Shown: positions 617 to 40,916 of the stretch, piece by piece
How the letters are laid out: every line of letters begins with the position of its first letter
Position numbering within the stretch: position 1 is the first letter of the stretch
The notes under the pieces: generated by a model
What the model saw: the letters and a program-made list of their open reading frames with translations, nothing else
Told to the model about the DNA's origin: nothing
Database searches by the model: none
Translations under genes and position numbers: made by a program
Assembly: GCA_012519415.1 (NCBI GenBank)
Contig: JAAYQG010000036.1
Span: 1 to 45,930 of the forward strand
Direction of reading: 5' to 3'
Length of the DNA: 45,930 nucleotides
Source: Treponema sp.
GTDB taxonomy: Bacteria > Spirochaetota > Spirochaetia > Treponematales > Treponemataceae

Positions 617-956
617 TTTTCTATCCTAATTTCTTATATATACTTCAGTCCATACAACAAGGAATATAAGCATACGGTGTTCCCCCTACTTCATTATTAG
701 ACTCTCTTCTATTTCTTTCATACTGAATTCCCATTTTGCTTTTGAAAAAAATATAATTTCACCAATTAAAAAAATAGTATATATATCTATTCTAAAATAA
801 AGCAGCATACTATTTTGGAATTATACTACAGTTTTGGGATTAATCTAGCGAAATCCAGCTGAGGTTTGAAGGAGCAACTTCTACGAGCTTTGAAATGTTC
901 TAATCAACCAAAACTCATAATTCATGGTACAATTCACTTAATTTGAAATCTTCAGT
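617..956. other. Intergenic region with a relative of the 31.5-kb repeat unit
   Basis: No gene is seen between the divergently placed membrane-protein genes. Around 829-856 the sequence runs CTACA, TTTTGGGATTAATCTAGCG, AAATCC. This closely matches the start of the fourth stem-loop unit at 31781-31811 (CTACA, ATTTGGGACTAATCTAGCA, AAACCC). It is therefore a degenerate dispersed copy of that non-coding repeat. A small hairpin (GAAG-GAGCAA-CTTC) follows it. Confidence 0.4.
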
Positions 957-5743: not shown

Positions 5744-5776
5744 TTGACTTTGTAAATGTGTACACATATAATGTGT
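5744..5776 (+). promoter_or_regulatory. Strong promoter with overlapping operator for the toxin-antitoxin pair
   Basis: TTGACT (5744-5749), a 17-bp spacer, and TATAAT (5767-5772). A perfect 12-bp palindrome ATGTGTACACAT (5756-5767) fills the end of the spacer, and a further half-site ATGTGT (5771-5776) overlaps the -10. This is the expected architecture for autorepression by a ribbon-helix-helix antitoxin. The promoter begins right after repeat copy 1. Confidence 0.75.
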
Positions 5777-5788
5777 AAAGAGGTAGCT

Positions 5789-6013
5789 ATGAAGAATATA
5801 ACTTTATCAATTGATGAAGATCTTTTACAGGCTGGTCGGGAATACGCTAAAAATCACAATATCTCATTTAACGCTCTTGTAAGAAGACTTATAATGCAAA
5901 CCGTTGTTACAAACAACAACAATTGGCTTGATAATACTTTTGAGCTTATGGACACATTGTATGTAACATCAGGCGAAGAGACGTGGACGAGGGAAGAATT
6001 ATATCGTGTCTAA
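5789..6013 (+). CDS. Ribbon-helix-helix antitoxin (VapB-type)
   Basis: A 74-aa protein. MKNITLSIDEDLLQAGREYA, then KNHNISFNALVRRLIMQTV, form a classic ribbon-helix-helix DNA-binding domain (beta strand KNITLSID, two helices). The acidic, Trp-containing C-terminus (GEETWTREELYRV) would wrap the toxin. I chose ATG 5789 because AAAGAGG lies 5 nt upstream and the upstream in-frame ATG would start inside the -10 hexamer. The end overlaps the PIN gene by 8 nt, giving translational coupling. It probably represses its own promoter at the ATGTGTACACAT site. Confidence 0.8.
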   Translation: MKNITLSIDEDLLQAGREYAKNHNISFNALVRRLIMQTVVTNNNNWLDNTFELMDTLYVTSGEETWTREELYRV

Positions 6014-6434
6014 AATATTTATTGATACAAACATACTTGTGTATACACTTGATTCAAAAGATCCCCGGAAACAAGCTAAAGCACGAGGAATAATGAGGAA
6101 AGTTGTAAATATGCACCAACCGGTCATATCAACACAAGTACTCAAAGAGTTCTACGTCGTTGCAACAACGAAAATGAAAGCCGATCGAATAATTGTTAAA
6201 AATATTATACACAATTTTAGTAATATTGAAATTGTTCAAAATGATTTAGAACTGATAGAACAAGCAATCGATATCAGTGTCATTTCACAATTATCATTTT
6301 GGGATTCTTTAATAATAGCTGCTGCAGAAAAAGCAAAATGTAAATATATTTTTTCTGAAGATTTAAATTCAGGACAAACATTTCGTGGCGTGATGGTGGT
6401 AAATCCGTTTGAGGAAGAGGATATGGCAGAATAG
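6006..6434 (+). CDS. PIN-domain ribonuclease toxin (VapC-type)
   Basis: A 142-aa PIN-domain protein with the acidic catalytic set in place: D7 (FIDTN), E48 (QVLKEFY), D100 (SFWDSLI) and D119 (FSEDLNSGQ). Such enzymes cut tRNA or rRNA with Mg2+ and are held in check by the cognate antitoxin. It starts at GTG 6006 inside the last codons of the antitoxin gene. The residues look intact, so the toxin is probably active. The pair lies between repeat copies 1 and 2 and behaves as a self-contained accessory module with its own promoter. Confidence 0.85.
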   Translation: MSKIFIDTNILVYTLDSKDPRKQAKARGIMRKVVNMHQPVISTQVLKEFYVVATTKMKADRIIVKNIIHNFSNIEIVQNDLELIEQAIDISVISQLSFWDSLIIAAAEKAKCKYIFSEDLNSGQTFRGVMVVNPFEEEDMAE

Positions 6435-29674: not shown

Positions 29675-31336
29675 TTATTTTCCTTTTTTATTAAACAAGT
29701 TTTTAATTTTTGCAAAAATCCCTAGTTTTTCAGATTTATCAGGTAATTTTTTAGCTTCATATTTTTTGCTGTAAGCGTTTGAATGATTGACTGATATTTG
29801 TCTGTTTTTTTGAGAATTGCTTTTTGGGCTTGTGTTTTTGCCGTTATATCGTTTTTTGCCGTTCTGTTTAGAATTTTTGTTTTTATCTAAAGATGCAGCA
29901 AGCTGATTGTTGGAAGCATATTTTTGTTTGTAAACTTTCATACGTTCTTCAAAAGAAAGTTTAGAAAGCTGTTCCGCATCTTGATGAAAATCTTTTATTG
30001 TATTTTGTTTTTTGCTATATTTTTTGTAGCTATCTTGTTTATAACCGGTTTTTATGCCGGAACGATTGGAATTATATTGTCGTTTTCCATCGTATTTTCC
30101 GCGTTTTTCGCGGCTATATTTTTTCTCTCGGCTGTAATTTTTAAAATCATGTTCATCATCGTAGTAATTTGTTATTTTGATGTAGATTCCATCACTTTTG
30201 TCTTCTGCCATTAATGTTTCATCTGCAACTTCTGACGGTATTGACATTTCAATATATCGTTCGATTGACGGCAAATTGTATACATCTTGTTCGCTACAGA
30301 AAGTGTAGGCTTTGCCTCTTTTTCCTGCACGAGCAGTACGCCCGATTCTGTGCACATAATTTTCAGCTTCATTTGGCAAGTCAAAATTTATAACCATTGC
30401 AAGATCATCTATATCTATTCCGCGCGCTGCAATATCTGTTGCAACAAGGCATTTAAGCGAGCCTTTTTTAAATGAGTCAATTATTTGGAGTCGTTTAGAT
30501 TGAGGCAAATCGCCGATTATAAATTCAGTTTCAAAGCCGTTGTATTGCAATCTTTTTGCGATAACTTCGCTTGCTCGCTTTGTGTTGCAAAAAACAATTA
30601 CACTTTCGGGTTTTTCTCTTAAAAGAATACCGCATAAAAGCTTCATTTTATCGTCGCTTGAAACATGGTAAAGAAACTGATCGATTTCACTTACTGTGAT
30701 GCTTTCGCATTCGATTGTTATTTCTTTTGCGTCTTCAGTATATTCCCACGCTAAGTTTTTAACATAAGTATTAAGCGTTGCACTAAAAAGCATTGTTTGG
30801 CGTTCATTCGTATTCGGCAAAACTTTGATTAATGTTCGTAGGTCCGGATAAAACCCCATATCAAACATTCGATCAGCTTCATCTATAACAAGAAAACCAA
30901 CATTGTTCAAATCCATTGAACCGCTTTCTTGCAAATCAATCACACGCCCCGGAGTTCCAACTATAATATCAACTCCTTTTGCAAGTCTCTGTTTCTGACG
31001 GTCGTATCCAACGCCGCCATAAAAACTTGCACATTTTAAGCCTGAGTAACGGGCTAGAATTTTTGCTTCTTCTTCAACTTGGACTGCAAGTTCTCTTGTT
31101 GGCACCATAATCAATGCTTTTTTGCCTTTTAAATTATCAGCTGATAATAATTGTTGAAAAATTGTAATCAGGTATGCTGCGGTTTTTCCTGTTCCTGTCT
31201 GGGATTGTACATAAAGGTCTGTTCCTTGAATTGCACCGGAAAGCACTTTTTCTTGAACCGGTGTACAAGTTTCGTAACCAGCATCAGCAATCCCGCTGAG
31301 TAGGTTCGCATTCAGCGAAAGTTCTGTAAAATTCAT
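29675..31336 (-). CDS. DEAD-box RNA helicase
   Basis: A 553-aa helicase. Motifs in order: Q motif region GYETCTPVQEKVL, motif I SQTGTGKTAAYL, Ia PTRELAVQ, Ib TPGRVID, II DEADRMFD (V-x-DEAD), III SATL, IV VIVFCNTK, V TDIAARGIDI, VI YVHRIGRTARAG. The last 150 residues are basic, low-complexity and rich in Lys, Ser, Asn and Tyr, typical of an RNA-binding tail. It probably unwinds mRNA or assists ribosome assembly. The following ABC-F gene starts 1 nt beyond its stop, so a translation-related operon is likely. The exact subfamily (RhlE/CshA-like) is uncertain. Confidence 0.9.
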   Translation of the reverse strand: MNFTELSLNANLLSGIADAGYETCTPVQEKVLSGAIQGTDLYVQSQTGTGKTAAYLITIFQQLLSADNLKGKKALIMVPTRELAVQVEEEAKILARYSGLKCASFYGGVGYDRQKQRLAKGVDIIVGTPGRVIDLQESGSMDLNNVGFLVIDEADRMFDMGFYPDLRTLIKVLPNTNERQTMLFSATLNTYVKNLAWEYTEDAKEITIECESITVSEIDQFLYHVSSDDKMKLLCGILLREKPESVIVFCNTKRASEVIAKRLQYNGFETEFIIGDLPQSKRLQIIDSFKKGSLKCLVATDIAARGIDIDDLAMVINFDLPNEAENYVHRIGRTARAGKRGKAYTFCSEQDVYNLPSIERYIEMSIPSEVADETLMAEDKSDGIYIKITNYYDDEHDFKNYSREKKYSREKRGKYDGKRQYNSNRSGIKTGYKQDSYKKYSKKQNTIKDFHQDAEQLSKLSFEERMKVYKQKYASNNQLAASLDKNKNSKQNGKKRYNGKNTSPKSNSQKNRQISVNHSNAYSKKYEAKKLPDKSEKLGIFAKIKNLFNKKGK

Positions 31337-31465
31337 AGTATCTCTTTGGGTATATATTCTTTCGGTTTAAAACCGTTTTTTTCAAATTATTAAACATTTA
31401 TAAAAATATCTATTGTTAGTGTATCGTTTTTTGAAGGTTATGAAAAGGCGGTTGCGTTTCGCATT

Positions 31466-31855
31466 GGGTTCTATCTAAAATTTGGGGTCTTTGTTAGCGA
31501 AACGCCAAGTTTTCGTGAACGAAAACTTGAAGATTGGTGTGTCGGGTGGGTTCTATCTAAAATTTGGGTTATGCTGGCGAAACGCCGAAGTTTGCACTTT
31601 AATCAGTCGTCTGTCTGATTAAAGTGCCGAGTTTTGCTTCACAAAACTCGTGCGTGGAACGAAAACTTGAGGGATGCGTTTTGCGTTTGGATTGGTGCTA
31701 TAAATTTGGGATTGTTTTAGCGAAACGCCAAGTTTTTTGCTTGCAAAAAACTTGAAGGATGGTCTGTCGGTGGGTTGGTGCTACAAATTTGGGACTAATC
31801 TAGCAAAACCCGTAGTTTTCGCTTCGCCAAACTACAAGGCTTGGGGGGCTGTCCT
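31466..31855. repeat. Tandem array of four stem-loop repeat units
   Basis: Four degenerate units begin at 31466, 31548, 31689 and 31772 (spacings 82, 141 and 83 bp). Each has GG(G/A)TT(C/G), then AATTTGGG(A/G), then AGCGAAACGCC (or a variant) and a stem-loop. Stems: AAGTTTTCG/CGAAAACTT (31507-31528), CGAGTTTTG/CAAAACTCG (31628-31650), AAGTTTTTTGC/GCAAAAAACTT (31730-31753), GTAGTTT/AAACTAC (31812-31835). Unit two has an extra perfect 13-bp stem, GCACTTTAATCAG/CTGATTAAAGTGC (31594-31627). Stem sequences differ but pairing is kept. It fills the 641-bp gene-free stretch between the helicase gene and zupT. No coding potential is visible. Confidence 0.75.
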
Positions 31856-31977
31856 AACCTGTATGGTTGGTGCCGGAGCAGCGCAGGAGTAGGCTTTTCT
31901 GCCGTTATTTGCCAATTTATAAATACCGGCATTTGTCCGATAATTGCTATAAGCAGCATTTTGTAAGGAGGAAAACT

Positions 31978-32838
31978 TTGAATACGCAGACTATAATCTT
32001 TGCTTTTTCATTAACACTATTTGCGGGTCTTGCAACAGGGATAGGAAGCCTTATTGGCTTTTTTTCAAAAAAATTCAATCCAAAATTTTTAGCAGCCGCT
32101 TTAGGCTTTTCTGCAGGCGTTATGATTTATGTCTCGCTCATAGAAATTTTTCCAAAAGCAAAAGACGCACTGGAACTTGCCTATGAGGGCAAAAAAGGCT
32201 ACGTTTTTACCGTACTTGCTTTTTTTATTGGAATGGCACTCATAGCAATTATTGATAAACTTATTCCCCAACATGAAAACCCTCATGAAATGTGCAATAT
32301 AGATCCGGAACACCTTTCTGCCGCACAACTGCGCCATGAGAAGACTCATTGTAACAAAGAAAATCTTGCAAGAGATGCAAACCAAAACAAACTTATGCGA
32401 ATGGGCATTTTTTCTGCATTGGCAATTGCAATTCATAACTTTCCGGAAGGCTTGGCAACATTTATGGGTGCGCTTAGAGAACCAGCAATGGGTATAAGCA
32501 TTGCAATAGCCATTGCCATTCACAACATTCCCGAAGGCTTAGCCGTTTCTGCACCCATATACTATGCAACCGGAAATAGAAAAAAAGCCTTTTTACTGTC
32601 TTTTTTGTCGGGCTTGTCGGAACCGGCAGGAGCCCTTATAGGTTTTTTTATACTAAGAAACTTTTTTAATGATACTGTTCTCGGACTCACCTTTGCAGGT
32701 GTTGCCGGTATTATGGTATACATTTCATTTGATGAACTTTTACCCACCGCCGAAGAATACGGCGAACACCATATAGCGATTGGAGGATTAATTGCAGGAA
32801 TGGCTGTAATGGCAGCTAGTTTACTTCTCTTTGCCTAA
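31978..32838 (+). CDS. zupT: ZIP-family metal transporter (ZupT-like)
   Basis: A 286-aa membrane protein with about eight helices. The ZIP metal-binding helices read AIHNFPEGLATFMGA and AIHNIPEGLAVSAPI, the paired HN-x-PEG motifs lining the Zn2+/Fe2+ path. A His-rich loop lies between (PQHENPHEMCNIDPEHLSAA). I chose the TTG at 31978 because a perfect AAGGAGG sits 6 nt upstream and the protein then starts like other ZupT (LNTQTIIFAFSLTLFAGLATGIGS); the longer upstream frame is untypical. It should import Zn2+ and other divalent metals. The diguanylate cyclase gene follows after 23 bp and may be co-transcribed. Confidence 0.9.
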   Translation: MNTQTIIFAFSLTLFAGLATGIGSLIGFFSKKFNPKFLAAALGFSAGVMIYVSLIEIFPKAKDALELAYEGKKGYVFTVLAFFIGMALIAIIDKLIPQHENPHEMCNIDPEHLSAAQLRHEKTHCNKENLARDANQNKLMRMGIFSALAIAIHNFPEGLATFMGALREPAMGISIAIAIAIHNIPEGLAVSAPIYYATGNRKKAFLLSFLSGLSEPAGALIGFFILRNFFNDTVLGLTFAGVAGIMVYISFDELLPTAEEYGEHHIAIGGLIAGMAVMAASLLLFA

Positions 32839-39602: not shown

Positions 39603-40916
39603 TTATTTTTTATGGCGTTTATCAAGTTCATCAAGAATATCTTTCCATGTTACTTTTTCTTGATACATAAGCACACTCAAAAAATAAAATAAATCAGCGA
39701 ATTCCCAAACTATCTCTTCTTTTGTTTCTGCTTCATCGGTAAGTTCTTCAGCTTCTTCCATGATTTTCTCACGAACCCGCTCCGGCGTTAAAGTTGCTGT
39801 GTAAGAACCGGATCGCGGATTAGCAAAACGCTCTGAAATAATCTCGTAAAGCATTTGCATCGAATATGGGCGATCTGCTGTTGTCTGAAAACAAGTCCAT
39901 GCACCTGTATGACAGGTGGGACCATGCGGAATAACAGTTGCAAGCACAGTATCTCGATCGCAATCTGCGCGCAATCGTACAACTTCAAGATAATTCCCCG
40001 AAGTTTCTCCTTTTGTCCATAGAGTATTTCTACTTCGGCTCCAAAATGTGAGTTTTTTGCTATCAAAAGTCTTTTCAAAAGCCTCTTTGTTTGAAAAACC
40101 CATCATCAAAACTTCGCCAGAAACAGATTGCGCAATAACAGGAATAAGAGAGTTTGTGTTTTCTTTTACTTTTTGCCAATTCAGACAACTTATAAATGCA
40201 TCTTTTAGCGCAACTTTTCCGGTGTAAAGTGCGACACCAAGCTGTACATCGCAACCTAAATGCTCAATTTTAGTTATTTCTTCAACAGAAGAAACACCGC
40301 CGGCAACAACAACTCTGCATTTTACAGCTTTTCGTAAAGCTTCCGCTTGTTCCATGCTTGTGCCTTGCATACAGCCTTCTTTTTCAACGCATGTAAATAA
40401 TAATTCATCTGCATATTTTTCAGCTGCTTTTGCGCCTTCAATCAAAGAAATCTCAACAGTTTCTGTCCAGCCTTTTACTGCAATTTTTCCATTTATAGAA
40501 TCTACGGAAATAATAATGCGCTCTTTGCCGATAGCGGCAGTGAGTTCATCTAAAAAAGCAATGTTAAGAACTGCTCCTTTTTTTTGCTCTTCAACATTTG
40601 CCCATGCAGCAGAACCGATAATAACTTTTTCGGCTCCAAGTGATATCAATTCTTTTGCCCGCTTAACTGTACGAATGCCGCCGCCGGTGCGCACATTGCC
40701 TTTTCGCAAAAGGCTTTTTAAAAGAGTCGTGTTGGGTGTTTCGCCTTTTTCGTTTATGTTTCCAAGCGCAGCATCAAGGTCAATTACTGCAACTTCGCCG
40801 TATAAGTCAAAATCTTTTATAAGTGAATCTGCATCGCTTCTTTCCAGCAATTTTTCTTTGCCGTTTTTTAACTGAACAACTTTGCCATCTTTTAAATCTA
40901 TTGAAGAAATTACCAT
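39603..40916 (-). CDS. HisA-HisI-HisE trifunctional histidine-biosynthesis fusion
   Basis: A 437-aa fusion. HisA isomerase, residues about 1-245: SSIDLKDGKVVQL with the first catalytic Asp, RTGGGIRT, SVDSINGKIAVKGW with the second Asp, VVVAGGVSS. HisI cyclohydrolase, about 250-350: MMGFSNKEAFEKT, TLWTKGETSGN, RADCDRDTVLATV and GPTCHTGAWTCF with the metal-binding Asp and Cys. HisE pyrophosphatase, about 350-437: EKIMEEAEELTDEA and WEFADLFYFLSVLM with the acidic helices. HisIE fusions are common; HisA joined in front covers consecutive steps 2, 3 and 4. All catalytic residues are visible. No other his gene is adjacent. Confidence 0.9.
   Translation of the reverse strand: MVISSIDLKDGKVVQLKNGKEKLLERSDADSLIKDFDLYGEVAVIDLDAALGNINEKGETPNTTLLKSLLRKGNVRTGGGIRTVKRAKELISLGAEKVIIGSAAWANVEEQKKGAVLNIAFLDELTAAIGKERIIISVDSINGKIAVKGWTETVEISLIEGAKAAEKYADELLFTCVEKEGCMQGTSMEQAEALRKAVKCRVVVAGGVSSVEEITKIEHLGCDVQLGVALYTGKVALKDAFISCLNWQKVKENTNSLIPVIAQSVSGEVLMMGFSNKEAFEKTFDSKKLTFWSRSRNTLWTKGETSGNYLEVVRLRADCDRDTVLATVIPHGPTCHTGAWTCFQTTADRPYSMQMLYEIISERFANPRSGSYTATLTPERVREKIMEEAEELTDEAETKEEIVWEFADLFYFLSVLMYQEKVTWKDILDELDKRHKK

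What the first reader, a model, noticed from the sequence alone, without database searches (positions are those of the whole stretch)
31466..31855. Four-unit tandem stem-loop array of unknown function between a helicase gene and zupT
The units share flanking sequence while their stems differ in sequence and keep perfect pairing; unit two has an additional perfect 13-bp stem. The region is gene-free and more G+C-rich than its flanks. A related unit lies at about 829-856, so the family is dispersed. Candidates are a structured non-coding RNA, a MITE-like element that targets itself, or a cassette-site array (attC-like sites also keep structure while sequence varies).
Basis: partly seen in the sequence, partly recalled or inferred. 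Interest (0 to 1): 0.55.

Follow-up and report, generated by a model that had tools for sequence, protein, structure and literature searches.

The report
Dispersed two-hairpin spirochaete repeat element
The four stem-loop units are one copy of a small repeat that has spread to about a hundred places between genes in this bacterium and to its sister species, keeping its paired stems while their letters change, so it looks like a small genomic parasite rather than a gene.

Summary
The array (31454-31840, slightly wider than reported) has two full and two headless units. A full unit is a 9-bp stem (H1, GCGTTTYGC/GCRAAACGC) around two imperfect ~15-bp direct repeats, a perfect hairpin (H2), then a ~17-nt tail. 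In the window's own genome I found 282 such cores in 98 arrays (lower bounds), 20.2 kb in all. A covariance model finds the unit in 7 of 8 genomes of the genus and almost nowhere else. Across species both stems are rewritten with pairing kept: 16 of 19 pairs show changes on both sides. At orthologous sites the element is present, absent or reversed in different species; this array is missing upstream of the helicase in all 5 readable orthologues. Unit 2 carries a degenerate antisense copy of the Rfam TD-2 motif, a module that replaces H2 in other arrays too. Best reading: a non-autonomous, hairpin-based mobile repeat resembling BOX/REP elements in organisation. No transposase, target duplication, integron integrase or Y1 transposase explains it, so how it moves is unknown. 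A conserved cis-regulatory RNA at this locus and attC sites are not supported; an RNA role for some copies is not excluded.

The parts
31454..31505 (+). Unit 1, H1: stem GCGTTTCGC (31454-31462) / GCGAAACGC (31497-31505) around two imperfect direct repeats
   Evidence: 97 of 119 distinct full cores of the genome pair 9/9 here
31506..31529 (+). Unit 1, H2: perfect hairpin CAAGTTTTCG/CGAAAACTTG
31530..31546 (+). Unit 1 tail (AAGATTGGTGTGTCGGG), counterpart of the TAACnGGTGCACAA tail seen after H2 in sister species
   Evidence: correspondence by eye
31547..31585 (+). Unit 2: headless core (left arm of H1 missing)
   Evidence: nhmmer hit, model positions 11-51, E 1.3e-7
31587..31675 (-). Unit 2 hairpin module: degenerate antisense TD-2-like module in place of H2, with the 13-bp stem 31594-31606/31615-31627 and hairpin CGAGTTTTG/CAAAACTCG (31628-31650)
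   Evidence: Rfam RF03162 TD-2 on - strand 31592-31682, 25.9 bits, below its gathering score of 48.7
31676..31728 (+). Unit 3, H1: full head (GCGTTTTGC / GCGAAACGC, one T-G pair)
31729..31754 (+). Unit 3, H2: perfect inverted repeat, 12-nt arms
31755..31770 (+). Unit 3 tail
   Evidence: by comparison
31771..31811 (+). Unit 4: headless core ending in AAACCC
   Evidence: nhmmer hit, E 2.2e-10
31812..31835 (+). Unit 4, H2 of the GTAG...CTAC subtype, imperfect (7 bp at the base)
   Evidence: CM hit 31761-31835, 39.8 bits
31337..31447 (.). Helicase leader, recognisable in three sister species; the array begins just after this similarity ends (ATGAAAAG)
   Evidence: by eye
814..853 (+). Degenerate solo core elsewhere in the window
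   Evidence: nhmmer E 2.6e-7

Best explanation
The array is one copy of a non-autonomous, hairpin-structured interspersed repeat of one bacterial genus. SHOWN: a modular unit (head H1, hairpin module H2 or an antisense TD-2-like three-hairpin module, short tail); about a hundred intergenic arrays of 1-7 units in this genome; the same unit in 7 of 8 genomes of the genus; compensatory change of both stems between species; presence, absence and reversed orientation at orthologous sites. INFERRED: units are copied to new intergenic sites by an enzyme supplied in trans which recognises the folded hairpins plus the conserved loop repeats (TTAATCTA-like) rather than the stem letters, most likely in DNA, since stems differ almost only by Watson-Crick exchanges; arrays then grow by insertion of new heads next to old hairpins and by unequal recombination. 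The host role is probably incidental (effects on neighbouring expression), as for BOX or REP elements. The enzyme is unknown.
For: Copy number: 282 distinct cores in 98 arrays, 1-7 cores each, 20,206 bp in all; 129 two-hairpin CM hits in G000, near the scoring cap. Neighbours: of 40 proteins scanned with Pfam (39 of them among the 138 neighbours listed) 32 match ordinary families, 1 a HigB-like toxin, 7 nothing, none a transposase. Distribution: 7 of 8 genus genomes (G005 none) and 1 of the other 29 genomes, with 2 weak hits; with a wider model 7 of 8 again, and 5 of the other 110 family genomes with 1-2 marginal hits each. Pairing: H1 perfect in 97 of 119 distinct full cores not chosen for pairing, permutations mean 44.8, maximum 61; 49-sequence cross-species alignment: 16 of 19 pairs changed on both sides, 110 such cells against 27.9 in shuffles. 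Mobility: helicase leader, element in 0 of 5 orthologues; otc upstream, element in 2 of 4 orthologues, opposite orientation to G000; argS downstream, in 2 of 5 readable ones, again opposite. 25 of 98 arrays lie within 200 bp of a contig end, as expected if the repeat breaks the assembly. DNA-level hint: 1 G-T among 371 scored H2 positions (355 Watson-Crick, 15 mismatches) in 35 congener units.
Against: No target-site duplication and no consistent insertion motif were seen at array ends (by eye). No mobilising enzyme: no Y1 transposase in G000, G001 or G006, no integron integrase over cut-off in G000; other transposase families were not searched genome-wide. Orientation is not random: the head end faces gene starts 57 times and gene ends 28 times (binomial p 0.002), and in tandem gaps arrays oppose the genes 23 to 10 (p 0.035), which could mean function or selection against one orientation. 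Covariation is also what a functional RNA would show. Sites were compared between species, not strains, so no single transposition event was seen.
Confidence: 0.74

Rival explanations
1. A functional structured RNA family: the two hairpins (and the TD-2-like module) act in leaders or as small RNAs, and selection on the RNA keeps the stems paired.
For: Strong covariation; weak orientation bias placing the - strand in the leader of the gene at the head end (57 vs 28); TD-2-like modules of G000 keep an AnGGA loop in the GCACTGC stem (10 of 10 distinct contexts found by a pattern that requires the closed stem), and Rfam files TD-2 as sRNA and TD-1 as cis-regulatory.
Against: About a hundred copies next to unrelated genes in every gene arrangement (tandem 33, divergent 18, convergent 12); sites and orientation not conserved between sister species; almost no G-T pairs; H2 loops are not conserved.
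Confidence: 0.15
2. Pairing is kept without selection: quasi-palindromes are corrected by template switching at replication, and the family spreads or is lost neutrally.
For: Perfect Watson-Crick palindromes with few one-sided states (22 of 119 full cores not perfect) and almost no G-T pairs.
Against: Does not explain dispersal, the fixed position of both stems, or the conserved loop repeats and tail.
Confidence: 0.06
3. REP-like repeats moved by a Y1 tyrosine transposase (RAYT/IS200-IS605).
For: Short hairpins, intergenic, in arrays and in inverted pairs (L032); no target duplication seen.
Against: No PF01797 match in G000 (98% complete), G001 or G006, which carry 129, 50 and 98 copies; G002 and G004 have one match each, so copies do not follow the enzyme.
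Confidence: 0.03
4. attC recombination sites of a chromosomal integron.
For: attC sites also keep structure while sequence varies (recalled); integrons occur in Treponema (PMC3607928, passages seen).
Against: No integron integrase over cut-off in G000, only Xer-like matches and a decayed fragment with two stops; G004 has 91 copies and no match over cut-off; units are dispersed singly and in short arrays without cassettes.
Confidence: 0.02

Closest known systems
BOX elements of Streptococcus pneumoniae (boxA-boxB-boxC; PMC3049150, passages read)
   Same: Modular small interspersed repeat, variable number of inner modules, intergenic, folded, nested with other repeats, thought to be non-autonomous and parasitic
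   Different: Different host; here each unit carries two hairpins whose stems covary between copies and species; BOX is reported over-represented between convergent genes, these are not (12 of 63)
Rfam TD-2 (RF03162) and TD-1 (RF03155), clan CL00124
   Same: Dispersed multi-hairpin motifs of the same bacterial family with variable stems; a TD-2-like module occupies the H2 position in some arrays, antisense to the array (9 of the 10 listed G000 matches lie in or beside arrays, all 9 antisense)
   Different: The H1-H2 unit matches neither model; TD-2 has three hairpins and AnGGA loops, and occurs without H1 in other genera
MITEs (review PMC10969869, passages read)
   Same: Short, non-autonomous, high-copy, folded, intergenic
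   Different: No target duplication found; the inverted repeat closes the head only, not the whole element; no parent insertion sequence found
REP/BIME elements with RAYT transposases (recalled)
   Same: Hairpins in arrays and inverted pairs
   Different: No Y1 transposase in this genome
Integron attC sites (PMC3607928, passages)
   Same: Structure kept, sequence free
   Different: No integrase, no cassettes, different box order (recalled definition)

Membership tests
MITE | Terminal inverted repeats bounding the whole element | tested here: not met
   The 9-bp inverted repeat closes the 52-54-nt head only; H2 and tail lie outside it. Some arrays end at a right arm, so a head-only element would meet it
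MITE | Target-site duplication | tested here: inconclusive
   None seen at array ends (by eye); CAAGTTT flanks some nested heads (by eye) but is also the start of most H2
MITE | Parent transposase with matching ends | tested here: inconclusive
   No transposase among 40 proteins scanned, 39 of the 138 listed neighbours; no genome-wide search for DDE or DEDD families
BOX-type repeat | End modules with a variable number of inner modules | tested here: met
   Arrays open with a full head and continue with headless or full units, 1-7 cores per array; met as organisation only
BOX-type repeat | Sequence relation to boxA/B/C | not tested
   No alignment with pneumococcal BOX was made
REP/RAYT | Y1 tyrosine transposase in the genome | tested here: not met
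   PF01797: 0 in G000, G001, G006
Integron attC | Integron integrase in the genome | tested here: not met
   TIGR02249: none over cut-off in G000; G000 is 97.95% complete
Integron attC | Sites alternate with gene cassettes | tested here: not met
   Units are 80-143 nt apart in this array; neighbours are chromosomal genes
Rfam TD-2 | Score at or above the gathering threshold | tested here: not met
   Window unit 2: 25.9 against 48.7 bits; elsewhere in G000 1 of 11 matches passes, at a place outside the arrays
Intrinsic terminator | Hairpin followed by a T run | tested here: not met
   Scan of 31300-32000 found two terminator-like sites, both outside the array (31363-31375, 31883-31902)
Structured RNA | Compensatory change in stems | tested here: met
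   alignment A4 was fitted to the model, and H2 of A2 was selected for pairing
Structured RNA | Transcription of the element | not testable with these tools
   No RNA-seq available

The most novel reading that the evidence does not exclude
A mobile element class recognised by fold rather than sequence: an undiscovered trans-acting enzyme copies any unit with a two-hairpin fold and TTAATCTA-like loop repeats, so that stem letters drift freely but only by paired exchanges, and foreign hairpin modules such as the TD-2 family can be captured in the H2 slot. The Rfam TD-1/TD-2 'RNAs' would then be parts of the same kind of mobile system, some of which the host may use as CsrA-binding decoys (their AnGGA hexaloops resemble the recalled CsrA consensus).
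Probability: 0.2. Interest if true: 0.75.

Novelty: new variant of a known kind. Interest (0 to 1): 0.5.

Why it matters
Small interspersed repeats shape bacterial intergenic DNA, and I found none described for these spirochaetes (searches named in Tried and rejected). This family keeps its fold and rewrites its stems across species, which offers a natural test of whether hairpins are recognised by shape. It also suggests that two catalogued RNA motifs of the same bacterial family, TD-1 and TD-2, should be re-examined as modules of dispersed repeats. It may explain in part why this genome assembles into 189 pieces: a quarter of the arrays found sit at contig ends.

Tried and rejected
Rejected: attC/integron, Y1/RAYT, intrinsic terminators, a known Rfam family for the H1-H2 unit (nothing at E <= 0.01 in 20 congener loci; only sub-threshold TD-2 and one chance-level hit), a tRNA gene (none), an autonomous partner between neighbouring arrays (OTCase, aldehyde dehydrogenase, ArgS, EAL protein, amidohydrolase). 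I looked by eye for target duplications, dif-like arms and a conserved right boundary at chromosomal sites and found none that held. Literature: searches listed no paper on such a repeat in Treponema; the paper I believe defines TD-1/TD-2 is not held and the 2010 paper has no mention of them, so their origin is recalled only. Papers seen: passages of PMC3607928, PMC1590033, PMC3049150, PMC10969869; listings only for the rest.

Caveats on counts: all G000 copy numbers are lower bounds, since searches score a capped number of candidates and only listed places were fetched. The sequences of A2 were chosen by requiring at least 9 paired bases in H2, so H2 pairing there is by construction; H1 was not chosen for pairing. 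Of 57 units listed, 46 were aligned; three with longer H2 and one with an inserted base were then dropped, leaving 42. One search had its right arm off by one base and is superseded. ORFs are mechanical. Relatedness of copies inflates the permutation contrasts.

Full report
What is there. The region between a DEAD-box helicase gene (29675-31336, - strand) and a ZIP-family zinc transporter gene (zupT-like, TTG start at 31978 by reading, + strand; Pfam) holds a four-unit array at 31454-31840. A full unit has three parts: a head H1, a 9-bp stem GCGTTTYGC/GCRAAACGC closing a loop of two imperfect direct repeats; a hairpin H2, CAAGTTT...AAACTTG or GTAGTTT...AAACTAC; and a short tail. Units 1 and 3 are full; units 2 and 4 lack the left arm of H1. 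Unit 2 carries, in place of H2, a longer module with a perfect 13-bp stem, which is a degenerate antisense match to Rfam TD-2 (25.9 bits against a gathering score of 48.7). A degenerate solo core lies at 814-853. The array folds far better than shuffled sequence (z -7.67).

It is a large dispersed family. BLAST with the array gave 139 matching pieces in the same genome (2.45 Mb, 189 contigs). Profile searches over the fetched loci gave 282 distinct cores in 98 arrays of 1 to 7 cores (25 single, 19 double, 24 triple, 30 longer), 20,206 bp in all. Twenty-five of the 98 lie within 200 bp of a contig end. In one search the covariance model built from 42 copies found 129 units in G000, 98 in G006, 91 in G004, 60 in G003, 50 in G001, 13 in G002, 3 in G007 and 0 in G005, plus 2 weak hits in one of the other 29 genomes. 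A model built across species gave the same picture over 118 family genomes: 7 of 8 in the genus, and 5 of the other 110 with one or two marginal hits.

Pairing is kept while letters change. In G000, 97 of 119 distinct full heads, not chosen for pairing, pair at all nine positions; shuffling right arms among copies gives 44.8 on average and 61 at most. The three main states are GCGTTTTGC/GCAAAACGC, GCGTTTCGC/GCGAAACGC and GGGTTTTGC/GCAAAACCC (58, 23 and 15 copies); the last goes with the GTAG...CTAC form of H2. In sister species the stems differ much more: 35 distinct congener hits have 19 different left arms and 35 different H2 sequences, with 355 Watson-Crick pairs, 1 G-T and 15 mismatches in H2; in H1 279 of 315 cells are Watson-Crick against 189 on average in permutations (maximum 227), and 12 of 35 are perfect. 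On a 49-sequence alignment, 16 of 19 pairs show changes on both sides, 110 such cells against 27.9 in shuffles and at most 14 when partners are slid. That alignment was fitted to the model, which favours the structure. What stays constant is the pair of TTAATCTA-like repeats in the H1 loop and a tail near TAACnGGTGCACAA (by eye). The rarity of G-T pairs is what one expects if the palindrome matters, or is repaired, in DNA; this is an inference.

It moves, or has moved. Upstream of the helicase, the leader of G003, G004 and G006 resembles the window up to ATGAAAAG, just before the array starts; none of the 5 readable orthologues (G002-G006) has an element there, while G001 and G007 gave only paralogues. 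Upstream of otc (ornithine/aspartate carbamoyltransferase family), G000 has an array opposed to the gene, G001 and G003 have units of other types along the gene, and G006 and G005 have none. Downstream of argS, G000 has a unit opposed to the gene, G006 and G003 have units along it, and G001, G004 and G002 have none. Such turnover speaks against a conserved cis-acting RNA at these sites. Neighbouring genes are ordinary: 40 proteins scanned, 39 of them among 138 listed neighbours, gave no transposase.

Placement. With a neighbour on both sides (63 arrays), gaps are tandem 33, divergent 18, convergent 12, not far from a 2:1:1 expectation; 35 arrays had no neighbour on one side within 600 bp. There is a mild orientation bias: in tandem gaps the array opposes the genes in 23 of 33, and the head end faces gene starts in 57 of 85 cases (p 0.035 and 0.002; right end 34 of 73). 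I count this against a purely neutral story.

Link to TD-2. Of the G000 TD-2 matches listed (10 of 11), nine lie in or beside arrays, all antisense to them; the tenth (C142) stands alone and is the only one over the gathering score. TD-2 matches occur in 18 of 40 relatives, with 59 in G021, again as tandem and inverted pairs with freely varying stems, and TD-1 overlaps TD-2 on the other strand at two loci. So these Rfam motifs behave like dispersed repeats too. Their AnGGA hexaloops resemble the CsrA consensus (recalled); nothing here tests binding.

Verdict. A family of small interspersed repeats not matched in Rfam, organised like BOX or REP elements, with a two-hairpin unit whose stems are rewritten but stay paired. 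The mobilising enzyme is not found. Novelty: new variant of a known kind.

Noticed in passing
G000:C142:21754-21846 and G021 loci L095-L106: TD-2 motifs keep AnGGA loops in two of three hairpins, some as GUACAAGGAUGUAC, close to the recalled CsrA consensus; Rfam lists TD-2 as sRNA, yet G021 has 59 dispersed matches.
   Followed up: partly
window 31978-32838: The zupT-like gene has only distant relatives (33-36% identity) in four of seven sister genomes and none in three; in the five helicase orthologues the neighbouring gene is not zupT (G003 and G004 share theirs).
   Followed up: partly
G000:C84:4500-12500 (L263, L264): Two units with equal model scores on opposite strands (93.6 bits each), with flanking frames in mirror order: a large inverted duplication or an assembly artefact.
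   Followed up: no
G000:C158 (L246, L080:1182-3107): The mechanical argS frame starts inside the H2 of an adjacent array, and its first residues match translations at other arrays; congener alignments start at residue 8-36.
   Followed up: no
G000:C64:6088-6210: Short fragment with two stops matching positions 195-235 of the integron integrase model: a possible relic of a lost integron.
   Followed up: no
window 5756-6434: Small adjacent pair read as an antitoxin-like protein and a PIN-domain-like toxin (by eye, not searched).
   Followed up: no
window 39603-40916: Apparent HisA-HisI/HisE fusion in one frame (by eye, not searched).
   Followed up: no
L037:1-420 (G004:C37): Tandem copies of a roughly 23-base unit (CACCGTCGCATTATGCTGTGC) just before a two-hairpin unit.
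   Followed up: no
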